This document shows, piece after piece, positions 18,105-28,345 of a DNA stretch of 64,000 bases (positions are counted from its first letter, which is position 1; each line of letters begins with the position of its first letter). The notes under the pieces are model-generated. The model had not been told where the DNA came from, ran no database searches, and was given only the letters and a program-made list of their open reading frames with translations. Source of the DNA: Ideonella paludis (GTDB taxonomy: Bacteria; Pseudomonadota; Gammaproteobacteria; Burkholderiales; Burkholderiaceae_C). The stretch is from assembly GCF_018069865.1 (NCBI RefSeq), contig NZ_JAGQDG010000001.1, positions 248,001-312,000 of the forward strand, written 5' to 3'. The position numbers and the translations under genes were made by a program.

Positions 18105-19073
18105 ATGGGTGCCCTTGCCCTGCTGCTTCGCCGACTGGCCTCGCTGAGCCTGACCTTGCTGGTGGCCTCGGCCTTGGTGTTTGCGGCCCTGGAATGGCTG
18201 CCGGGCAATGCGGCCGAGGTGATGCTGGGGGAATCCGCCACGCCCGAGGCGGTGACGGCACTCACGCAAAAGCTGGGGCTGGATCAACCCGCAGCGACAC
18301 GCTATGTGCAGTGGGTCAGCGGCTTGCTGCAAGGCCAGCCGGGCATCAGCTTGTCCTATGACGAGCCAACGTTTGCCCTGCTGGCCGAGCGCATGCAGGT
18401 CACCGGCCCCTTGGCGCTGATGGCCATGGTGCTGACCGTCATCGTGGCGCTCAGCCTCGGGGTCTATGCTGCCGCACGGCACGGCCGCCTGGGCGATGTG
18501 GCCGTGATGAGCGCCGGGCAAGTGGGCCTGGCTTTGCCCAACTTCTGGCTGGCGATTTTGCTGATCTTGCTGTTTGCGGTGAAGCTGCAGTGGGTGGGCG
18601 CGGGTGGGTTTCCCGGCTGGTCGGAGGACGACGGTGGCGGGCTCATGGCCGGGCTGAAGGCGCTGCTCTTGCCCGCCTTGGCACTGGCCTGTGTGCAGGC
18701 GGCCATCTTGGCGCGGGTCACGCGCTCGGCCGTGCTGGAAGTGATGCGCGAAGACTTTGTGCGCACCGCGCGGGCCAAGGGCTTGAGCCGCCGCGCAGTG
18801 ATGTGGCGGCATGTGCTGCGCAATGCCATGGTGCCGGTGCTGACCGTGATGGGCCTGCAAATGGCCAACCTGCTGACCGGCACCATCGTGGTGGAAAACG
18901 TGTTCGTCTTGCCCGGCGTCGGGCGCCTGGTGTTCCAGGCCATCAGCAACCGCGACCTGGTCTTGGTGCGCGATGTGGTGATGGCCTTGGTGGCCTTGGT
19001 GGTGCTGATCAACTTTGTGGTGGAGCTGCTCTATCTGTGGCTGGACCCGCGCCTGAAGCGAGGCCGCTCATGA
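18105..19073 (+). CDS. Peptide/oligopeptide-type ABC transporter permease (DppB-like)
   Basis: A 322-residue inner-membrane permease with an N-terminal helix, a periplasmic loop and five further helices. The EAA motif that contacts the ATPase is VRTARAKGLSRRAVMWRHVLRNA. It matches DppB/OppB proteins in length and in the C-terminal FVLPGVGRLVFQAISNRDLVLV. First gene of a five-gene operon; its stop overlaps the next start as ATGA (19070-19073). With its partners it should import a peptide-like or otherwise amidated substrate. Confidence 0.9.
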   Translation: MGALALLLRRLASLSLTLLVASALVFAALEWLPGNAAEVMLGESATPEAVTALTQKLGLDQPAATRYVQWVSGLLQGQPGISLSYDEPTFALLAERMQVTGPLALMAMVLTVIVALSLGVYAAARHGRLGDVAVMSAGQVGLALPNFWLAILLILLFAVKLQWVGAGGFPGWSEDDGGGLMAGLKALLLPALALACVQAAILARVTRSAVLEVMREDFVRTARAKGLSRRAVMWRHVLRNAMVPVLTVMGLQMANLLTGTIVVENVFVLPGVGRLVFQAISNRDLVLVRDVVMALVALVVLINFVVELLYLWLDPRLKRGRS

Positions 19074-19954
19074 GCCCGCAAGGCCAGGCCCACATCGCGC
19101 CCTCAGCCACGCCGCCCCTGCCCGCCACGCTGGGGCAGCGCGCCTTGCGCCACCGCAGCTTCATGCTGGGCGCAGTGCTGGTGGCGCTGGTGGCGGGCGT
19201 GGCGCTGCTGTCCTTGGTCTGGCAGCCTTACCCACCGGCTGAGTTGGACATTCCTAACAAGCTGCAAGGCCCCAGCAGCCTGCACTGGCTGGGCACCGAC
19301 AGCTTGGGGCGCGACATCGCCTCGCAGCTGATGGTGGGCGCGCAAAGTGCGTTGATGGTGGGCTTGCTGGCGGTGGGCTGGGGCCTGGTGCTGGGCCTGG
19401 CCTTGGGGCTGCTCGCCGCCGCACGGCGCGGCTGGGTGGACGAAGTGCTGATGCGTGCGGTGGACTTTGGCTTTGCCTTTCCGGCCCTGCTGACCGCGAT
19501 TCTCTTGGCCGCCGCCCAAGGCCCGGGCCTGGCCACCAGCATCATCGCGATCGGGCTGTTCAACATCCCTGTCTTCATGCGGGTCACACGCGCGGCGGCC
19601 CTGAATGTCTGGGCGCGAGACTACATCCTCGCTGCGCGGCTGTCGGGCCTCGGCACCTGGGCCATCACCCGCAGCCATGTGTTGCCCAATATCGCCGCAC
19701 CGCTGATTGTGCAGGCCACCATCCAATGCGCCCTGGCCATCTTGGCCGAGGCCGCACTGGCCTTTCTGGGCCTGGGCACTCAGGCGCCGCAGCCCAGTTG
19801 GGGCCGCATGCTGGCCGACGCACAACTGCAGTTGTTCAATGCGCCGCTGCTGGCGCTGTGGCCCGGCTTGGCGATTGCCACCACGGTGCTCGGGCTCAAC
19901 TTGCTGGGTGACGGCCTGCGTGACCTGCTGGACCCGAAACTGCGCCATCGCTAG
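19070..19954 (+). CDS. Peptide/oligopeptide-type ABC transporter permease (DppC-like)
   Basis: A 294-residue permease, the second half of the channel. The first helix (FMLGAVLVALVAGVALLSLVW) is followed by the family motif LHWLGTDSLGRDIASQLMVGAQSAL and the EAA loop YILAARLSGLGTWAITRSHVLPNIAAPLIVQ. It starts inside the previous gene's stop (ATGA), so the two are translationally coupled. A sulfotransferase gene follows after nine bases. Confidence 0.9.
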   Translation: MSPQGQAHIAPSATPPLPATLGQRALRHRSFMLGAVLVALVAGVALLSLVWQPYPPAELDIPNKLQGPSSLHWLGTDSLGRDIASQLMVGAQSALMVGLLAVGWGLVLGLALGLLAAARRGWVDEVLMRAVDFGFAFPALLTAILLAAAQGPGLATSIIAIGLFNIPVFMRVTRAAALNVWARDYILAARLSGLGTWAITRSHVLPNIAAPLIVQATIQCALAILAEAALAFLGLGTQAPQPSWGRMLADAQLQLFNAPLLALWPGLAIATTVLGLNLLGDGLRDLLDPKLRHR

Positions 19955-19963
19955 GAGCTGCTC

Positions 19964-20923
19964 ATGCCCACCTTTATTGTTGGTTTCGCACGCTCAGGCA
20001 CCACCTTGTGCCAACGCTTGGTGGCCGAGCGCTTCGGTTTGCCCACCGTGCCGGAGACGCATTACTTTGAGTGCCTGCCCGAGCACCTGCCCGAGGGCGA
20101 GCGACTGACGCGCCGCCAGGCCGAGGGCTTGCTGAGCTCGCTATCGCCTTATCTGCCGCTCAAGCAGGCCGAGCGAGAGGCCTTGCTGCCTGCGCGCGGC
20201 ACGCCCGTGCGCGCGCTGTTCATGCGCTTGATGGAAGCCCTGCTGCCCGCCACAGCCGCCTCGGCCCAGGCCTTGCAAGACGGCCAGTGGCTGGAGAAAA
20301 CACCCGGCCATGTCTGGCATATGGAGCGCATCCTCAAGCTCTTTCCCAAAGCACGCTTTGTGGCCATGGTGCGCTCGCCCTTCACGGCCTTGGCCTCACG
20401 GCGTGAGCTGGCCGAGCCTGGCAAAGGCTGGGGCGAAACCTGGCGGCCGATTGAAGACTATGCGCGCGATTGGGCTTGGACGCAGCAGCACATTTGGCAG
20501 TTTGCGCGAGCACACCCAGAAGCCCTGCTGATGGTGCGCTTGGAAGACTTGAGCCTGCAGCCCGAAGAGGAGCTGGCCCGCATCGGCGCCTTCTTGCACC
20601 GCGCGCCCCGGCGCAGCCGCCGCCTGGGCCGAAGCCGTTTGCTCATGCCCTTTGAAACCTGGAAGCGCGGGGCCATGGGCGAGGTGGACCCGGCCGTCGC
20701 GCAGCGCCAAGGCCGCTCGGGCCTGAGCCCGTTTGAGCGTTGGCGGCTGAGCCAGATTTTGGCCCCGCAACTGGCCGCGCTGGGCTACACCGAGCACGCG
20801 CCTGAGCCGCCGCTCGATGCGCTGCACCGCCAGTTGCTGGCCAGCGTCGATTGGTTTCGGCCCTCGCTGCCCGCGATACCGGAGGGCTGGGTGCCTCTGC
20901 CGCCCACCCGGCCCACGCCATGA
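19964..20923 (+). CDS. Sulfotransferase-family protein inside the ABC transporter operon
   Basis: A 319-residue cytosolic sulfotransferase-fold protein. The N-terminal P-loop FIVGFARSGTTLCQRL is the 5'-phosphosulfate-binding motif for PAPS, and RFVAMVRSPFTALASRR provides the 3'-phosphate-binding Arg/Ser. KTPGHVWHMERIL is also typical. No signal peptide is seen. It lies nine bases after the DppC-like gene, and its stop overlaps the next ATPase start (ATGA 20920-20923), so it is an integral operon member. Transfer of sulfate to an imported or cell-envelope acceptor is the simplest inference; the acceptor is unknown. Confidence 0.85.
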   Translation: MPTFIVGFARSGTTLCQRLVAERFGLPTVPETHYFECLPEHLPEGERLTRRQAEGLLSSLSPYLPLKQAEREALLPARGTPVRALFMRLMEALLPATAASAQALQDGQWLEKTPGHVWHMERILKLFPKARFVAMVRSPFTALASRRELAEPGKGWGETWRPIEDYARDWAWTQQHIWQFARAHPEALLMVRLEDLSLQPEEELARIGAFLHRAPRRSRRLGRSRLLMPFETWKRGAMGEVDPAVAQRQGRSGLSPFERWRLSQILAPQLAALGYTEHAPEPPLDALHRQLLASVDWFRPSLPAIPEGWVPLPPTRPTP

Positions 20924-21906
20924 GCCCCACCACCGCCCCGACCACCGCCCACAGCGGCTTGCAGGTGCACCAGTTGCAAGTCCGCCTGCCCGGCGGCGCG
21001 CAGGTGCTGCGTGAGGTGTCCTTCAGCCTGGAGAAGGGCCAGACCCTGGGGCTGGTGGGCGAGTCGGGCTGCGGCAAGTCCATGACGGCCCTGGCCTTGA
21101 TGGGCTTGCTGCCAGAAGGCGCCCAACAAAGCGGCGAGCTATGGTGGGGCGGCCAGGCCCTGCACCGCATGGACGAAGCCGAATGGTGCGCCTGGCGCGG
21201 GGCTCGGGTGGCCATGGTGTTCCAAGAGCCGATGACCGCCTTGAACCCCCTGCACACCATTGGCCAGCAGATTGCCGAGGGCTTGAGGCTGCACCAGCGG
21301 CTGGGCCGCGCCGAAGCCGAAGCCCAAGCCCTGCAATGGCTGGAGCGCGTGCACATGCCGCAGCCGGCCCAGCGCCTGCGGGCCTATCCGCACCAACTCT
21401 CGGGCGGCCAGCGCCAGCGGGTGGTGCTGGCCATGGCGCTGGCCTGCGGGCCGGAGCTGCTGGTGGCTGATGAGCCCACCACCGCCTTGGACGCCCATGT
21501 GCAGCGCGAGGTGCTGGACCTGATGCGTGACCTGGTGGCCGAGCACGGCATGAGCTTGCTGCTGATCAGCCATGACCTGGCGGTGATGGCCCAGCGCGTG
21601 CAGCAGGTGGCGGTGATGTATGCCGGTGAGGTGGTGGAGATGGGCCCCACCGACGCGGTGTTTGCCCGGCCCCGCCACCCCTACACCCAAGCCTTGATGG
21701 CAGCCCGCCCGCGCTTGGGGCTGCCCCGGGGCACGCGGCTGCCGGTGCTGGCCGGGCGCGTGCCCGCCAGCACCGCTCACATCCAAGGCTGCGCCTTTGC
21801 CCCACGCTGCGGGCGGGCGCAAGCCGGCTGTCATCAGCAAGCCCCCCGCATGGACGAGGCCTCCTCGCACCGCGTGCGCTGCTGGCACCCCTTGGAGGCT
21901 GCATGA
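20920..21906 (+). CDS. Peptide-type ABC transporter ATPase (DppD-like)
   Basis: A 328-residue ATPase. Walker A is [10 protein letters not shown], signature [15 protein letters not shown], Walker [13 protein letters not shown] and the H-loop ISHDLAV. The C-terminal extension ends with a cysteine-containing region ([19 protein letters not shown]) that matches the OppD/DppD oligopeptide-type tail, which carries an Fe-S cluster in some members. It is coupled by ATGA overlaps to the sulfotransferase upstream and the second ATPase downstream. Confidence 0.92.
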
Positions 21907-22682
21907 GCACGCCCTTGCTGCAGGTCGAGTCCCTCAGCCAACGTTATGCCTTGCCGCGCACGGCGGGCTGGCGGCTGGCCACGGTTCAAGCCTTGGCATC
22001 CGTCAGCTTCACACTGCCTGCGGGGCGGAACTTGGGCGTGGTGGGGGAGTCGGGCTCGGGCAAGTCCACCCTGGCGCGCTTGGTCTGCGCTTTAGAGGCG
22101 CCCCACTGCGGCAGCGTGCGCTTTGAGGGGCAGGACTTGCACCGCCTCTCGCCCACCGCCTTGCGGGCCGCGCGGCGCGGCTTTCAAATGGTGTTTCAAG
22201 ACCCGTTTGGCTCGCTGGACCCGCGCATGCGCATTGGCCACAGCGTGGCCGAACCCTTGCGCGGCCTGCGCCTAGGGTCCAGCGCCGAGCAGCACGCCCG
22301 CGTCGCTGAGATGCTCGAAGCCGTGGGGCTGAATGCCACTGATTCCGAACGTTATCCGCATGAGTTCTCAGGCGGCCAGCGCCAGCGCATTGCCTTGGCC
22401 CGGGCCTTGATCACTCGCCCGCAGCTCATCGTCGCCGATGAGCCCGTCAGCGCCCTGGATGTCTCGGTGCAGGCCCAGGTGTTGAACCTGATGCAAGACC
22501 TGCAGGAGCGCTATGGCGTGACCTACCTCTTCATCAGCCACGACTTGGCGGTGGTGGACTTGATCTGCGATGAGGTGCTGGTGCTGCAACACGGCCAGGT
22601 GGTGGAGCATGGCCCCACCGACGAAGTGCTGCGCCACCCTCAACACCCCTACACCCAAAGCCTGCTGGCAGCGGCGCTCTGA
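21903..22682 (+). CDS. Peptide-type ABC transporter ATPase (DppF-like)
   Basis: A 259-residue second ATPase. It has Walker A GESGSGKST, signature FSGGQRQRIALARAL, Walker B LIVADEPVSALDVSVQ and the H-loop ISHDLAV. It is shorter than typical DppF, ending HPYTQSLLAAAL without the cysteine-rich tail. Last gene of the operon; a GC hairpin follows directly. The operon has no solute-binding protein of its own, and the probable one is at 28346-29863. Confidence 0.92.
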   Translation: MSTPLLQVESLSQRYALPRTAGWRLATVQALASVSFTLPAGRNLGVVGESGSGKSTLARLVCALEAPHCGSVRFEGQDLHRLSPTALRAARRGFQMVFQDPFGSLDPRMRIGHSVAEPLRGLRLGSSAEQHARVAEMLEAVGLNATDSERYPHEFSGGQRQRIALARALITRPQLIVADEPVSALDVSVQAQVLNLMQDLQERYGVTYLFISHDLAVVDLICDEVLVLQHGQVVEHGPTDEVLRHPQHPYTQSLLAAAL

Positions 22683-22739: not shown

Positions 22740-25700
22740 TTAACCGCCGCCGCCCTTTTTCAGGCCGCCCGTGCCCGTCGAGGCGGCCTTGGCCCGGGCT
22801 GCGGCTTGCGCTTGCGCGCCGCTGTCCGCGTTGATCTGGCGCAGGTACTCCACCAACTGAGCCATCTCGCCGGCAGGCGGCTGGATGGTGTTCTTGGTGT
22901 GGGCGCGCACGGCATCTTCCAGCGTGGCGGCCGAGCCGTCATGCAGATAAGGCGCGCTGGCCCACACACCCGCCAGCGAGGGCACATCAATGCCGGTCAG
23001 CGCGGCGCCCAGGCGGTTGCCGCTGCTGGCCTTCAAGGTGCCGACATCGCGCAGCGGTGTCGCAGAACCCGGGAAGCCAGGGGTGGCATGGCAGCTAGCG
23101 CACTGCGCATTGATATAGGTCTGGCGACCCAGTTGCGCTGTCGCGGTGAGGTTGCCATCGGCCTGGCGCCATGGGCTGTCGACCGGCGTGGTCAAGGACT
23201 TCACATAGGCCGCCAAGGCATCCAGGTCGGTGCTCAGGCCGGTCTTGCGATCGCCCAAAGGCGTGCTGCGCGTGCCGCCATAGAAGTCGTTGTAGCTCAT
23301 CAGGCCAGAGCCTTGGGCGAAGTTGCGGATCTGACCTTCAAAGTCTTGGATCTCGTCAAAGTTGCCGCTCCAGTGCTGGAAGCCTTGGGCCCCGGCCTTG
23401 CCGCGCAGGTCCACGGTGTTGCGCAGGCCTTCACCAAAGCCGGTGAAGTCCCACACCCGGCCGTCGTCCGCCCCATCGGCGTGGCAGACCGCGCAGCTCA
23501 AGTAGCCATCACGGGCCAGACGGGTGTCCTTGGCGTCGTAGAACAACTGCTTGCCCAGCAGGACGTTGGCGGGCAAGGCCTCGGTCACCACGGTTGAGGC
23601 GGTGGTGATGGGCTTGCTCTCCAGCAGGCCATTGCGCACCAGCGGGCTCAGGTCGACCACGCTGACGCTGCGGTCCATGAAGTTCTGGACATAGAGCGTG
23701 CGGCCATCGGCCGACAGCGTCAGACCTTGCGGGGCACGGCCCACATTGATGCGGAACAGCTCACGGCGACCCACCGGGTCCACCACGGCCACTTCGCGGG
23801 TGGTCTCCAGCGCCACAAAGAGGTAGGCCCCCGTGGGATGGAACGCCGCCGCCGAGGCCAAGCCCGCGTTGTCGTGGTCCACACGGGCGGCGTAGTCCTC
23901 TTGGTTGGCCGTCAGGTCAATGCGCGAGCTGATGGCGCGCACCGAGTTCTGGAAGTCCAGTTGCTGAGCGCTGCGCAGCATGCCGCGGCCGATGTTGTCT
24001 TGCTTGGAAGGAACCCAAGCCGACTTACCATCGGGCGCAATCACGGCCGCGGCCAAGTAGTTGGGCACACCGCTGCCCGTGACCGAGGTGTCGAGCTTGT
24101 CGCTGTGCTGCAGCACGATGCGGCGTTGGGTGGTGAAGGCCGCCGTGCTGACTTCAATCACCTCACCACCGGTCTTCACGCCGTTGAGGTCACCGCGCAC
24201 CTTGCCGGTGGCTTCACCCGGCTGCAGGGCCGTGGTGAAGCGCGAGACAAACAAACGCGAGCCATCGGCCGAGATCGACAGATGGCGCGGATTGCCACCC
24301 ACCGTCACGGTGCCCACCGCGGCGCCCGTCAGGTCGTACTTCACCACCTGACCGGTCGCCTCAAGGCTGACGTAGGCGAAATCGCCCAGCGGTGAGAACA
24401 CGATGCCATAAGGCCGCGAGCCGCGCGGTGTGGGCAGCGAGCCGGAGATGCCACCGCTGTTTTGGTCGATCAGCGCCAAATTGCCGCTGGTCTGGTTGAC
24501 GATCACCACCGGCCCATTGGGCACCAGGCCCAGGCTCGTGGGGCCGGTGCCACCGGTCGAGACTTCTCCCAAGCGGTTCATGCTGGGCAGCTCAAACACG
24601 CTGACCGTGTTGTTGTCGGGCGAGAGCACCCACAAGCGCGGCGCCACATCGGTGCGCGGCTCGATCAAGATGTTGGTGCTGGCCAGCGGCGCCTTGGCCG
24701 TGACGGGCGTGGTCACCGCTTGACGGAAGGTCACCGTCTTGCGGCTGCCATCCACGGTGCTGCGGATGATCAGATTGACCACATACAAGCCCGGCGTGGT
24801 GAAGGTGTGGTCGGCATTGGGTGAAGTGGCCGCAGCAGGGTCTGCGCTGCCGTCCCCAAACTGCCAGAGGTACTCCACACTGCCGGCCCCCTTGACCACG
24901 GGCCGATAGTTGGCCGTCTGGCCGGCCAAGATGGGCGGCGCCTCGATCGGGTCCACCTCCGCCAGGGGCTCCTTGATGGTCCAGGTGAAGCTGGCCTCGC
25001 CGGCCATGCGTGCCGGGTCAGTGGCCACCACGATGACGCTGTAGACGCCACTGACGGTGGGGGTGCCTGAGATCACGCCATCGGCGGCGATGCTCATGCC
25101 GGGCGGCAGGCCACTGGCGGTGTACACCAAGGGTTGAGCTTCGGGGTCGCGGGCCGTGATGGTCAGCGTGTCTGGCACGCCGCGCAGGCCTTCGCGGTTG
25201 GTCATGGCCGGCACCACCGGCGCCGCATTGGCCAGGGTGGAGAGCAGGTTGTTGGCAGGCACCGGCACAAAGGTGCTGGAGCCCGGCGTCTTCCACAACA
25301 GGCGCACCACGGCGGCCTTGTCTTGGTCAAAGTATTCCAAGGTCAGCGGCACCAACTGGCCAGCGGCCAGTGCCACCGGGCCGACGGTGTCGCCCACCAC
25401 AGCGCCAGGGCTGGTCCAGCGGTTGATCACCGGGTCGACAATGCCGCCGCCCCACATCCGCACGCCGTCATCGGCTTCGGTGCGGAACTCGTAGTCACCG
25501 CTGGTGCTGATGACGATGCTGCCTTGCCAGCGCACCGAGAAGCCATCGGGCTGCACATTCGGGCCGGGTGAGCCCAAACCCCAGTCAAAGTTCGGCGTCT
25601 CCACGCGGCTCAACACCGGCACACCAGACAGGGTTGTGTTGTTGAAGTAAGTCGCACGCAGGCCGGTGGCGATGCTGAGGTCGCCAAACAGCACTTCAGC

Positions 25701-27977
25701 AGGCACCACCTCAAAACCGGTGGCGCCCGGCTTCTTCCACAGCAGGCGGACCGTGCCCGAGGCATTGCCGTTGAAGTACTTCAAAGAGATGGGCACGCGC
25801 TGGCCGGCCAGCAATTGCACCGAACCGCTGGTGTTGGTGGTGGTGGCATGGCTGACCCAGTTGTCGATCAGCGAAGCGTTGTTCAAGGTGAGACGCACAC
25901 CATCATCGGAGATGGTTTGGAACTGGTAAGTGCCGCTGGTGGGGGCCTGCAACTGGCCTGACCACTCCACGGAGAAGTCGTTGACCGCCACGCCGGGGGC
26001 CGGAGCCGCACTCCAGGCGAAGTCCACGTTCTCGGTGCGCAGATACACCGCGGTGCCACCCAACGCTTGGCCATTGAAATAGCGGCCGATCAGGCCCGAG
26101 CCTTGGCTGCTAGCACCCGTCACCACCCACTCAAAGGTGGTGGAGGTGACGCCATTGCTGTTGGCTGCTCTGACGGTCACGGTGTAGGTGCCGCCGGCCG
26201 TGGGAGCGCCCGACACCACGCCCGTGGTCTTGTCGATGGTCACACCGGGCGGCAGGCCTGTCGCGCTGTAGTTGAAGCCGGGCTGTGAGGCCGTGGCATT
26301 GACGTTGAAGCTGACGGGCGAATAGGCGTCCGTGCTGCGCGAGGGCACCGGCTGGATCAGCGGCACACCGTCAGCGCTGATGGTGACGATTTTGGCCACC
26401 GAAGGCACACCGTTGGCGTCCATCGCAAACAGCATCCATGGGCCTGGCAGCAACCAGCCGGGGTTGCTGGGGATCTGCACACTGTAGATGTTGTTGCCGA
26501 TGCTGGCCGAGACCAGCGGAACACGGCGTTGGTCGTTGTTGACCGTGTGCGTGGTGGCGCCCAGGCGCACCATCGCAAAGTCGGTGACTGCGCCACTCAT
26601 GGCCACGTTCACCACCGAGCCGTACTTCACCGTGCTCGGCGCAGTCTGGATGACTGGGCGCTGTGCGGCGCTGCCGTCAGCATTGAACAGGTAAGGCGGG
26701 GAGAGCAGTTGTAAGTCGGCATGGTTGGCCGCGCAACCACCGCACAAGCCACCACCCGCCGACAGCACACGGCCGTCCGGCAGCAGCATGGCGATGCTGT
26801 GATAGTTCCGAGGCACCGACATGGCGCTGGGCAAGGTGGTGAAGGTCTCGGTGGTGGGGTCCCAAATCTCGGCCGACATCACCGAATCGTTGTCGGTGAA
26901 AGAGGCCTCAAAAGTCTGGCCGCCAATCACGACCACCCGGCCATCGGGCAGCACCACGCTGTTGTGATAGACGCGCTGGAAGGCCATATTGGCCACTTTG
27001 CGCACCGACACGCCCTTGTCGAACTCGATCACAAAGGCATTGTTGCGAGCCGGCGTCCCCAGCTTGTGGACACCACCCGTCTTCAGCGCACGACCGATGT
27101 CGTACATCACCAAGTTGCCCGCCACACTGGGGCCGTCTGCGCCGCCTTGCACGGACGGGTCAGTCCGATCTCCGATGTAGGTGGTCGCCCCCGTGCCTGC
27201 GGTGTCCAGCCAGTGCATGCGCACACCAGGGCCAGGATGCAAGACCTTGCCATTGCCCGCAGGCACCAGCCAGTAATGGGAGTCGCCGCCCCACGGGCCG
27301 TCGCTGGTGAGGGTGGAGTCGATACGCATGCCGCTCAGCGTGCGCCAGCCCGAGCCCGACGACCAGACCTCTCCGTGCTTGCCACCCGTGCCGCCGCTCC
27401 AGGAGCCCCCAAAGGTCAGCACCGAGCCGTCTTGCAGCAAGGTGTTGGCCTGGTAGCCGCGGGGGATGTTCATCTCGCCGCCACGCGACCAACTGTTCGC
27501 ATTCAGGTCATAAATGCTGGTGGCCGCAGAGTCGCTGCCGCCGTTGACCAGCAAACGACCATCGGCCAGCAGCGTGGTGCCGGTGCAGAACATGGCATGG
27601 CCCGTCTCTTGCACCAGCCGATCACTGGCGGTGTTGGACACCGGGTCATAGACCGTGGTGTAGGTGCTGCCACCGCCACCAAACGACATGGGGTTATTGG
27701 CCGACCACAGCAACACTTTGCCATTGGGCAGCACCGAGCCCGACGAGGGCACCAGGCTCAGCTTCGTCGGCGCAGACCAGCGCGCAGTCGCAGCGGTTTG
27801 GGCGTTCAGGGGTGAGCGGGCTGCGGTGGGCGCGCGGCGCTCATCCGGATCGACGCTGGCCGCAGGTTCTTCCACCTCACTGCCCCCGCCGCCGCCACAG
27901 GCAGTCAAGGCCAACAAGACACCGTAAACAGCCGCCCACAGGGGCGCGCGAGACCAGCGATTCATTTTTGTATTCAT
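22740..27977 (-). CDS. Giant lipoprotein: galactose oxidase + PA14 x2 + PKD + YVTN propeller + di-haem peroxidase-like domain
   Basis: A 1745-residue exported lipoprotein (lipobox LTAC, Cys 27). Start ATG 27977 has GGAG nine bases upstream. Domains: 60-540 kelch propeller plus C-terminal Ig-like set of galactose oxidase, with the copper-radical residues conserved: C131 (MFCTG) and Y175 (RGYQ) for the thioether cofactor, stacking W193 (GGSWSGG), Y392-H393 (NYHS) and H477 (THTVN). Then an Ig-like putative domain (545-620), PA14 (630-765), PA14 (772-910), a second Ig-like domain (920-1005), PKD (1010-1090), a YVTN beta-propeller (1105-1450) and a C-terminal cytochrome module with two haem sites, CAVCH (1495-1499) and CASCH (1626-1630), and APYLHDGSAATLEDAV as in cytochrome c peroxidase/MauG. 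It should oxidise a primary alcohol, probably a glycan, making H2O2 that the peroxidase-like module might reduce. That coupling is inference. Confidence 0.88.
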   Translation of the reverse strand: MNTKMNRWSRAPLWAAVYGVLLALTACGGGGGSEVEEPAASVDPDERRAPTAARSPLNAQTAATARWSAPTKLSLVPSSGSVLPNGKVLLWSANNPMSFGGGGSTYTTVYDPVSNTASDRLVQETGHAMFCTGTTLLADGRLLVNGGSDSAATSIYDLNANSWSRGGEMNIPRGYQANTLLQDGSVLTFGGSWSGGTGGKHGEVWSSGSGWRTLSGMRIDSTLTSDGPWGGDSHYWLVPAGNGKVLHPGPGVRMHWLDTAGTGATTYIGDRTDPSVQGGADGPSVAGNLVMYDIGRALKTGGVHKLGTPARNNAFVIEFDKGVSVRKVANMAFQRVYHNSVVLPDGRVVVIGGQTFEASFTDNDSVMSAEIWDPTTETFTTLPSAMSVPRNYHSIAMLLPDGRVLSAGGGLCGGCAANHADLQLLSPPYLFNADGSAAQRPVIQTAPSTVKYGSVVNVAMSGAVTDFAMVRLGATTHTVNNDQRRVPLVSASIGNNIYSVQIPSNPGWLLPGPWMLFAMDANGVPSVAKIVTISADGVPLIQPVPSRSTDAYSPVSFNVNATASQPGFNYSATGLPPGVTIDKTTGVVSGAPTAGGTYTVTVRAANSNGVTSTTFEWVVTGASSQGSGLIGRYFNGQALGGTAVYLRTENVDFAWSAAPAPGVAVNDFSVEWSGQLQAPTSGTYQFQTISDDGVRLTLNNASLIDNWVSHATTTNTSGSVQLLAGQRVPISLKYFNGNASGTVRLLWKKPGATGFEVVPAEVLFGDLSIATGLRATYFNNTTLSGVPVLSRVETPNFDWGLGSPGPNVQPDGFSVRWQGSIVISTSGDYEFRTEADDGVRMWGGGIVDPVINRWTSPGAVVGDTVGPVALAAGQLVPLTLEYFDQDKAAVVRLLWKTPGSSTFVPVPANNLLSTLANAAPVVPAMTNREGLRGVPDTLTITARDPEAQPLVYTASGLPPGMSIAADGVISGTPTVSGVYSVIVVATDPARMAGEASFTWTIKEPLAEVDPIEAPPILAGQTANYRPVVKGAGSVEYLWQFGDGSADPAAATSPNADHTFTTPGLYVVNLIIRSTVDGSRKTVTFRQAVTTPVTAKAPLASTNILIEPRTDVAPRLWVLSPDNNTVSVFELPSMNRLGEVSTGGTGPTSLGLVPNGPVVIVNQTSGNLALIDQNSGGISGSLPTPRGSRPYGIVFSPLGDFAYVSLEATGQVVKYDLTGAAVGTVTVGGNPRHLSISADGSRLFVSRFTTALQPGEATGKVRGDLNGVKTGGEVIEVSTAAFTTQRRIVLQHSDKLDTSVTGSGVPNYLAAAVIAPDGKSAWVPSKQDNIGRGMLRSAQQLDFQNSVRAISSRIDLTANQEDYAARVDHDNAGLASAAAFHPTGAYLFVALETTREVAVVDPVGRRELFRINVGRAPQGLTLSADGRTLYVQNFMDRSVSVVDLSPLVRNGLLESKPITTASTVVTEALPANVLLGKQLFYDAKDTRLARDGYLSCAVCHADGADDGRVWDFTGFGEGLRNTVDLRGKAGAQGFQHWSGNFDEIQDFEGQIRNFAQGSGLMSYNDFYGGTRSTPLGDRKTGLSTDLDALAAYVKSLTTPVDSPWRQADGNLTATAQLGRQTYINAQCASCHATPGFPGSATPLRDVGTLKASSGNRLGAALTGIDVPSLAGVWASAPYLHDGSAATLEDAVRAHTKNTIQPPAGEMAQLVEYLRQINADSGAQAQAAARAKAASTGTGGLKKGGGG

Positions 27978-28345
27978 GGCGTACAACTCCAGCCCACTCA
28001 GACCCCGACATCGTGGCCCAAGGCGTCATATCGACCACCCGAGCCCACGGCTTGATCACGGCAAGCCCAGGGTCTGCGTGACAGACCAGAGAATTTAACG
28101 CTTTGTTGCGATTAGCCCCAGCCCCTCCTCAGAACTTCGCCCGCGATTAGCCCCATCGGACGTGGCAAAGTTGGCAGCAAATGCAAATCTCACCCGCGAG
28201 AGCAATGTTCTCCATCCAGGCCTACCCCTTCCGCCGCCCTGACCTGCCCTCTGCCCATCGCTCGGGAAACCCTGTGCGCCGAACACCGGCAACGCGCTAA
28301 ATTTCGGGCACCATGCGCCCGTCCTCATTCCAAGGAAACCACGTC
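27978..28345. other. Divergent intergenic region with a 13-bp direct repeat
   Basis: About 370 bases between the giant lipoprotein gene and the divergent solute-binding-protein gene. GCGATTAGCCCCA occurs twice in the same orientation, at 28108-28120 and 28143-28155, about three helical turns apart, which could be a regulator site. AAGGA just before ATG 28346 is the ribosome site of the next gene. No small gene or RNA is recognised. Confidence 0.5.

What the first reader, a model, noticed from the sequence alone, without database searches (positions are those of the whole stretch)
22740..27977. Galactose oxidase fused to a di-haem peroxidase-like module in one giant lipoprotein
The N-terminal domain keeps the residues of the copper-radical oxidase (C131, Y175, W193, Y392-H393, H477), and the C-terminus has two CxxCH haem sites with a MauG/cytochrome-c-peroxidase tail. 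The family makes H2O2 from primary alcohols, and the second family uses H2O2. A single envelope-anchored protein might thus oxidise glycans and pass the peroxide to its own peroxidase, or send electrons onward. PA14 domains and a propeller in between could hold glycans. Where classical peroxidases have a Met near 'AVxxM', this protein has His (about residue 1693), so haem properties may differ. I know of bacterial galactose-oxidase relatives (GlxA, FbfB) but not of this fusion.
Basis: partly seen in the sequence, partly recalled or inferred. Interest (0 to 1): 0.87.

Follow-up and report, generated by a model that had tools for sequence, protein, structure and literature searches.

The report
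Copper-radical oxidase fused to di-haem cytochrome
One large surface lipoprotein joins a galactose-oxidase-type copper enzyme, which should make hydrogen peroxide, to a two-haem protein of the peroxidase fold; the fusion recurs across many bacteria, often beside its own cytochrome and copper-delivery genes, so it looks like a real but unstudied enzyme family.

Summary
Window 22740-27986(-) is one 1748-codon frame: lipobox, galactose oxidase (GO), He_PIG, two PA14, PKD, YVTN propeller, di-haem CCP/MauG-like module. It is no artefact: of 81 haem frames in the 80 best-matching loci of named genomes, 70 carry GO N-terminally, 9 are cut at contig edges, 2 are frame-broken. In an even sample of 399 genomes of the order, 12 have the haem module and 5 of 15 readable copies are GO-fused. 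Copper/radical residues are invariant in 77 GO modules; galactose contacts are lost here. GO classes and haem modules were exchanged. Class-1 fusions, like this one, have a mono-haem cytochrome c and a SCO copper chaperone next door in 26 of 32 loci; in this genome that pair is unlinked. The haem module departs from true peroxidases: His replaces the Met/Tyr ligand and nothing acidic matches Glu114. Most likely it handles GO's peroxide and perhaps keeps the copper radical active, as separate peroxidases do in fungi. That step is inference; no structure could be computed.

The parts
22740..27986 (-). Whole fusion gene, 1748 codons (TTG at 27986; likelier ATG starts at 27975-27977 or 27963-27965)
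   Evidence: the ORF listing; codons
27897..27899 (-). Cys30, lipobox LTAC: predicted lipoprotein
   Evidence: sequence; a lipobox in 49 of 53 N-terminally complete fusions of GO classes 1, 3, 4, 5 (window included) but 1 of 20 of class 2
26352..27806 (-). Galactose-oxidase-type copper radical oxidase module (residues 61-545), GO class 1
   Evidence: Pfam; PDB match 446 bits; class
27585..27587 (-). Cys134 (= Fusarium GO Cys228, thioether cofactor)
   Evidence: alignment; Cys in 76 of 76 modules that cover the site (77 examined, one truncated)
27453..27455 (-). Tyr178 (= Tyr272, Cys-Tyr radical)
   Evidence: 77 of 77
27399..27401 (-). Trp196 (= Trp290, stacking Trp)
   Evidence: present here; Trp in 32 of 77 modules
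26799..26804 (-). Tyr395-His396 (= Tyr495-His496, Cu ligands)
   Evidence: 77 of 77
26547..26549 (-). His480 (= His581, Cu ligand)
   Evidence: 77 of 77
26118..26360 (-). Ig-like He_PIG domain (543-623); a second He_PIG stretch also passed
   Evidence: Pfam
25212..26111 (-). Two PA14 domains (626-925), variable modules; relatives have F5/8 type C, malectin or PA14 at the C-terminal end instead
   Evidence: Pfam; phmmer
24702..24971 (-). PKD domain (1006-1095)
   Evidence: Pfam; phmmer
23607..24689 (-). YVTN/YncE-type beta-propeller (1100-1460), before the haem module in 13 of 13 proteins compared
22812..23606 (-). Di-haem CCP/MauG/HZS-gamma-like module (1461-1725)
23481..23495 (-). First haem site CAVCH (1498-1502)
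23370..23375 (-). His1538-Trp1539: Trp aligns with the Trp of the FWDGR motif of CCPs (inter-haem Trp, role recalled); His stands where those have Phe
   Evidence: 89 of 89; alignment to 3o5c and 1iqc
23088..23102 (-). Second haem site CASCH (1629-1633)
22899..22901 (-). His1696, in place of the CCP Met / MauG Tyr ligand of the C-terminal haem
   Evidence: alignment; His in 85 of 89

Best explanation
This is a member of an unstudied bacterial family of exported two-centre redox enzymes: a copper-radical oxidase (AA5 type) and a propeller plus di-haem module on one polypeptide. SHOWN: the architecture, its recurrence, invariant active-site residues in both modules, and partner genes. INFERRED: the copper module, loaded by a SCO chaperone, oxidises a primary alcohol (or aldehyde) on a surface glycan or small molecule and makes H2O2. 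The tethered di-haem module uses that H2O2 close to where it is made. In class-1 members, electrons are exchanged with the small dedicated cytochrome c. Its likely benefit is to remove peroxide and, as separate peroxidases do for fungal copper radical oxidases (CROs), to return the copper site to its active Cu(II)-radical state. Substrate and direction of electron flow are not known.
For: GO residues invariant in 77 modules of five classes; purifying selection on every module tested. GO in the same frame as the haem module in 70 of 81 frames of the 80 best-matching loci, N-terminal to it in 70 of 70. GO class changes 15 times on the haem tree (least possible 4), so different oxidases were paired with this haem module repeatedly; L030 and L025 of one genome have GO 32% and haem module 89% identical. 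Copper supply: SCO gene within 2.5 kb in 26 of 32 class-1 and 9 of 11 class-4 loci (six of these SCO proteins built the model); Pfam confirmed 3 of 3 neighbours tested and two further SCO genes of the own genome. A mono-haem cytochrome c (RCxNCH...MPRY) beside the same 26 class-1 fusions (10 of them built the model), 24 of 26 on the strand of the fusion. At over 100 bits this cytochrome is in 5 of 60 relatives, exactly those with class-1 fusions; three others give 26-33 bits (Fisher 1.8e-7, kinship not corrected). Own genome and G004 keep the cytochrome-SCO pair away from the fusion. Precedents: a Colletotrichum peroxidase activates a CRO, EPR supporting one-electron oxidation to the radical form (PMC9770985, passages); at low copper GlxA of Streptomyces needs Sco and the peroxidase DtpA to mature, and DtpA uses GlxA's H2O2 (PMC4736821, abstract and sections 3.2-3.3).
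Against: No conserved acidic residue stands for CCP Glu114. The presumed bis-His C-terminal haem is like that of RoxA, which has no peroxidase activity and whose active haem is destroyed by H2O2 (PMC6797691, passages). The haem module also exists without GO: 10 of 15 readable copies in an even sample of the order, with the same HW...DFE..IR motif where looked at; in G431 no GO was found in the genome at E 1e-25. So the module cannot exist only to serve GO. A bis-His haem is usually of low potential (HZS gamma-II about -330 mV, PMC12607021, passages), so taking electrons from a His/Met cytochrome c would be uphill (general knowledge). Class 2, 3, 4 and 5 fusions have no such cytochrome beside them, and classes 2, 3 and 5 almost no SCO (1 of 34), though both models were built from class-1 and class-4 neighbours. 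DtpA gave no boost of GlxA turnover over HRP. No structure was obtained, so the copper-haem distance is unknown.
Confidence: 0.42

Rival explanations
1. Electron outlet: the di-haem module and the small cytochrome c carry electrons out of the copper oxidase to the respiratory chain, making a copper-radical alcohol dehydrogenase, by analogy with quinohaemoproteins.
For: A His/Met-type cytochrome c beside 26 of 32 class-1 fusions; a low-potential bis-His haem feeding a high-potential cytochrome is downhill (general knowledge).
Against: Re-oxidising the copper-radical centre needs a strong oxidant, which a low-potential haem is not, and GO enzymes react readily with O2 (general knowledge). Classes 2-5 have no such cytochrome beside them.
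Confidence: 0.17
2. Separate haem chemistry: the propeller plus di-haem module is an oxygenase or small-molecule reductase of its own (RoxA- or HZS-gamma-like), combined with GO only because both act on the same polymer.
For: Haem modules without GO are common in the order (10 of 15) and carry ricin- and laminin-type lectin domains in both G431 copies; no peroxidase-type acid; best solved chain by profile is HZS gamma, 80.5 bits, although by the single window sequence a CCP comes first, 53.1 against 49.6 bits; RoxA-like_Cyt-c above cut-off.
Against: Repeated pairing with different GO classes and the cytochrome found at over 100 bits only in class-1 genomes point to a functional link with GO. 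RoxB, RoxC and HZS models score far under their cut-offs.
Confidence: 0.22
3. Maturation only: the haem module helps to build the Cys-Tyr cofactor (MauG-like chemistry on its own polypeptide) and is idle afterwards.
For: DtpA and Sco mutants leave GlxA immature at low copper (PMC4736821, section 3.2); MauG and MbnH are relatives; in class 2 the CCP-type neighbours carry MbnP or YtkA in 5 of 6 tested.
Against: Fungal GO builds the cofactor unaided with Cu and O2 (general knowledge); a standalone GO gene occurs in the same genome without a haem module.
Confidence: 0.12
4. Assembly artefact, pseudogene or chance fusion.
For: Sister genome G004 has a frame break in the gene.
Against: 70 in-frame fusions in other records (a few near-duplicates), dN/dS 0.06-0.11, invariant sites.
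Confidence: 0.02

Closest known systems
Galactose oxidase / AA5 copper radical oxidases (1gof, 9g8h)
   Same: All Cu ligands and the Cys-Tyr pair, kelch repeats and E-set domain
   Different: Galactose contacts lost in the window copy; fused to PA14, propeller and haem modules
Fungal tandem AlcOx-peroxidase pair (PMC9770985) and Streptomyces GlxA-DtpA-Sco (PMC4736821)
   Same: Copper radical oxidase working with a haem peroxidase; Sco chaperone in Streptomyces
   Different: There separate proteins and other peroxidase families (class II, DyP); here one chain and a c-type di-haem module
Bacterial di-haem cytochrome c peroxidase / MauG / MbnH
   Same: Two CxxCH, inter-haem Trp, sequence similarity
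   Different: His instead of Met/Tyr at the C-terminal haem; no residue for Glu114; His before the Trp
Hydrazine synthase beta-gamma (5c2v)
   Same: Propeller followed by di-haem module; best profile match to the haem module (80.5 bits); its bis-His haem is proposed to take electrons from a cytochrome c (PMC12607021, passages)
   Different: Far below the NCBIfam cut-off (60.8 against 1250 bits)
Rubber oxygenases RoxA/RoxB
   Same: CCP fold without acidic residues in the distal pocket; bis-His C-terminal haem (PMC6797691, passages); PF21419 match
   Different: RoxB and RoxC models give 16 and 21 bits against 900; the Phe301 position is His here if Trp302 is the inter-haem Trp (numbering recalled)

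Membership tests
AA5 copper radical oxidase (galactose oxidase type) | Cu ligands Tyr272, Tyr495, His496, His581 and thioether Cys228 | tested here: met
   All present in the window; Cys 76 of 76, the others 77 of 77 modules
AA5 copper radical oxidase (galactose oxidase type) | Sequence similarity to solved members | tested here: met
   446 bits over residues 62-537
AA5 copper radical oxidase (galactose oxidase type) | Oxidase activity, Cys-Tyr cross-link, radical | not testable with these tools
   Needs protein
D-galactose oxidase (substrate) | Galactose contacts Arg330, Tyr405, Gln406 (roles recalled) | tested here: not met
   Gly, Leu, Gly in the window; all kept in plasmid relative L035
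GlxA (NF052501) | NCBIfam curated cut-off 800 bits | tested here: not met
   139.5 bits
Bacterial di-haem CCP | Two CxxCH and inter-haem Trp | tested here: met
Bacterial di-haem CCP | Met ligand at the C-terminal haem | tested here: not met
   His in 85 of 89, Met in none
Bacterial di-haem CCP | Catalytic Glu114 (role recalled) | tested here: not met
   No conserved acidic residue at the aligned site; local register uncertain
Bacterial di-haem CCP | Peroxidase activity | not testable with these tools
   Needs protein
MauG | Tyr294 haem ligand (role recalled); NCBIfam cut-off | tested here: not met
   His; 38.9 against 443.85 bits
RoxA/RoxB/RoxC | NCBIfam curated cut-off (RoxB, RoxC) | tested here: not met
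   RoxB 16, RoxC 20.6 against 900 bits
RoxA/RoxB/RoxC | bis-His C-terminal haem | tested here: inconclusive
   His at the ligand position by alignment only
Hydrazine synthase beta-gamma | NCBIfam cut-off | tested here: not met
   60.8 against 1250 bits
Hydrazine synthase beta-gamma | Distal Asp168 of haem gamma-I | tested here: inconclusive
   Its place in the chain rests on recalled numbering; the aligned residue here would be Gly
SCO copper chaperone (neighbour) | SCO1-SenC Pfam match, CxxxCP, later His | tested here: met
   Pfam: 3 of 3 neighbours tested plus two other own-genome SCO genes; CxxxCP in 36 of 36 neighbours, a loose later-His pattern in 28 of 36

The most novel reading that the evidence does not exclude
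A self-activating copper-radical enzyme: the oxidase's own H2O2 is turned into a ferryl or bis-Fe(IV) state on the tethered di-haem module, which re-oxidises (or first builds) the Cu(II)-tyrosyl-cysteine radical in cis, with an invariant distal His, and perhaps Arg, replacing the classical Glu, and with the small cytochrome c setting the redox poise. It would be a copper-radical and c-haem enzyme on one chain and a covalent version of the fungal CRO-peroxidase tandem.
Probability: 0.22. Interest if true: 0.9.

Novelty: new variant of a known kind. Interest (0 to 1): 0.74.

Why it matters
How copper radical oxidases are kept in the active radical state in nature is an open question; the work I saw uses added HRP or separate partner peroxidases. 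A bacterial family in which a haem module is on the same chain, often with a cytochrome and a copper chaperone encoded next door, makes the question directly testable, and could give self-sufficient oxidases for biocatalysis. It also links the CCP/MauG/hydrazine-synthase fold to a new partner.

Tried and rejected
No fold search was made, so copper-haem distance and haem pockets are untested.

RoxB (NF050034) was sought in 250 genomes of the family to get a residue-level comparison: 0 of 250 at E 1e-60, and no control rang, so this is no evidence of absence. For a comparison with canonical CCPs the script looked in four loci and recovered one protein (L020); that MAFFT alignment put the inter-haem Trp elsewhere than HMMER did. 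I keep the HMMER register and mark the local alignment as uncertain.

My first impression that the haem module always comes with GO was too strong: it holds for the 80 loci, which were chosen by similarity, but not in an even sample.

Rejected: frameshift/assembly join as cause; galactose specificity; true CCP membership; uniqueness of the fusion.

Literature (open-access library only, titles and abstract starts of the listings): galactose oxidase with cytochrome c peroxidase and fusion (4 of 4 listed), copper radical oxidase with peroxidase and activation (20 of 63), GlxA (14 of 14), MauG (11 of 11), DUF1929/PA14/cytochrome c (15 of 288), Pseudoduganella (none), c-type cytochrome (5 of 5), copper chaperone and cytochrome c (4 of 4). 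No listed title reports this fusion.
Full report
WHAT IS THERE. The gene at window 22740-27986(-) is a single open frame of 1748 codons. From the N terminus: lipobox (Cys30), galactose-oxidase (GO) module 61-545, He_PIG, two PA14, He_PIG, PKD, YVTN propeller 1100-1460, di-haem module 1461-1725. The GO module matches solved galactose oxidases with 446 bits.

NOT AN ARTEFACT. The genome holds a second, diverged fusion (G000:C11:946436-950365; GO 29%, haem module 54% identical to the window's) and one standalone GO beside a SCO gene (C17). By record title they are mostly Burkholderiales, also Verrucomicrobiota and Gammaproteobacteria, and single records labelled Blastocatellia, Planctomycetota, Chloroflexi, Trueperaceae and Methylopila (many are MAGs, so labels may be wrong; the Chloroflexi record is cut before GO could show). 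Of 81 strong haem frames in these 80 loci, 70 have GO in the same frame, in all 70 N-terminal of the haems; 9 are cut by a contig edge; 2 (L036 = G004, L087) are frame-broken with GO in a neighbouring piece. Some records are near-duplicates (for example L049/L050, L113/L114). dN/dS between window and G004 is 0.06-0.11 in the modules tested.

HOW COMMON. In 398 evenly drawn genomes of the phylum, the haem module was found in 3 and GO in 10 at E 1e-25. In 399 of the order, 12 genomes had 16 haem modules at E 1e-40: 5 GO-fused (own two, G051, two in G1003), 10 complete without GO (G057, G044, two in G431, two in G875, G783, G773, G947, G920), 1 cut at a contig edge. These searches score only a few candidates per genome, so misses are possible. 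The haem module is thus a wider family: some frames are only 735-864 aa (the one examined, G044, is propeller plus haem), others carry lectin-type domains (G431). GO is its usual partner only among the closest relatives.

CONSERVATION. Across 77 GO modules (5 duplicate records dropped) Tyr272, Tyr495, His496 and His581 are 77 of 77 and Cys228 76 of 76 (one module is truncated); the stacking Trp290 is 32 of 77. Galactose contacts vary widely, and the window copy has lost R330, Y405, Q406 and P463, while L035 keeps them. Across 89 haem modules, the first CxxCH is 88 of 88 (one fragment lacks it), the second 89 of 89, the inter-haem Trp and the His before it 89 of 89, the C-terminal His 85 of 89 (2 of the 4 exceptions are GO-fused). 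Where CCP has Glu114 (role recalled) no acidic residue is conserved; the exact register there is uncertain.

MODULE EXCHANGE. GO modules fall into classes of 32, 21, 12, 11 and 1. On the haem tree the class changes 15 times, against a least possible 4; shuffled labels give about 38.5, which shows only that classes are clustered. Many inner branches of this quick tree are weak (18 of 74 starred); starred branches alone force at least 4, 1, 4 and 2 changes for classes 1 to 4. The starred pairs L030/L025 (haem 89%, GO 32%) and L073/L061 (81%, 33%) show exchange directly.

PARTNER GENES. SCO copper chaperone within 2.5 kb: class 1 26 of 32, class 4 9 of 11, class 3 1 of 12 (a weak 53-bit hit), class 2 0 of 21, class 5 0 of 1; the model was built from six of these neighbours. 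The own genome has 4 SCO genes in 4.8 Mb, so I estimate chance proximity at about 1%. Between fusion and SCO in class 1 lies a mono-haem cytochrome c with at best marginal Pfam matches (invariant RCxNCH-type site and Met-Pro). It is beside the same 26 loci (10 of these proteins built the model), 24 of 26 on the strand of the fusion, adjacent and in some loci overlapping. Of the 6 class-1 loci without the pair, 3 end at the contig edge (L046, L092, L093); the others are the window, its sister G004, and L115. In 60 relatives the cytochrome (over 100 bits) is in exactly the 5 genomes with class-1 fusions; three more genomes have 26-33 bit hits. In the order sample it is in 2 of 399 at E 1e-20, both class-1 carriers (the two G1003 fusions were not classed). 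In the window's genome cytochrome and a SCO gene are adjacent at C11:766936-768071, about 0.5 Mb from the fusion, and in G004 the pair lies on another contig than the fusion. So the window gene looks like a relocated member of a three-gene set. In class 2, 11 of 21 loci have a CCP-type neighbour; of 6 tested 3 are MbnP-CCP/MauG, 2 YtkA-CCP, 1 CCP alone. MbnP is, from memory, a copper-binding protein modified by the MauG relative MbnH, so this too may point to copper supply. One Blastocatellia fusion has a heavy-metal-binding protein next to it. Class 3 has no such neighbour that I recognised. The window's own neighbours (ABC transporter, sulfotransferase, amidase, aldehyde dehydrogenase) give no clue.

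HOW IT PROBABLY WORKS. The copper module is very likely a working copper radical oxidase, loaded with copper through SCO. Copper radical oxidases need one-electron oxidation to be active; a fungal tandem peroxidase does this for its alcohol oxidase (PMC9770985, passages), GlxA of Streptomyces depends at low copper on Sco and the peroxidase DtpA (PMC4736821, abstract and sections 3.2-3.3), and HRP/ABTS reactivates glyoxal oxidase (PMC10928124, passages). The fusion puts a haem module of the CCP family on the same chain. I therefore favour peroxide handling with possible radical activation, at 0.42. Against it stand the missing Glu, the likely bis-His haem (RoxA has no peroxidase activity, passages; HZS gamma-II is about -330 mV, passages), and haem modules without GO. 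Electron export, separate haem chemistry and maturation remain open.

NOVELTY. Both halves are known families; separate CRO-peroxidase partnerships are known; no title listed in my searches reports a copper-radical/di-haem fusion (open-access library, two listings partial). The plasmid relative is annotated only as discoidin domain-containing protein. New variant of a known kind.

Noticed in passing
L129:6392-7653 (own genome C11:766891-768152): Orphan pair of mono-haem cytochrome c and SCO genes that elsewhere sits beside class-1 fusions; the next gene (L129:7650-8657) has no Pfam match and no phmmer match among the frames of the fusion loci searched.
   Followed up: partly
L057:1969-3768, L090:3067-4821, L098:2155-4008: MbnP fused to a CCP/MauG protein directly upstream of GO/di-haem fusions in Verrucomicrobia; gammaproteobacterial loci L052 and L082 have a YtkA-CCP protein downstream instead.
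   Followed up: partly
L071:183-9980: Three GO-type genes in tandem in Rivibacter subsaxonicus (two without haem module, one fusion).
   Followed up: no
L123:1154-10711: 3185-aa fusion with five malectin stretches, extra kelch repeats, GO and di-haem modules.
   Followed up: no
L121, L122 (G431) and L033 (G057): Di-haem proteins of this family without GO but with laminin-G and ricin-type lectin domains (G431) or LVIVD repeats (G057).
   Followed up: partly
L027:7744-13507 (G004): Sister gene of the window fusion is in two overlapping frames, broken between GO and PA14; real or sequencing error not known.
   Followed up: no
window 19964-20923: Sulfotransferase-like gene inside what looks like a peptide ABC transporter operon (18590-22682).
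   Followed up: no
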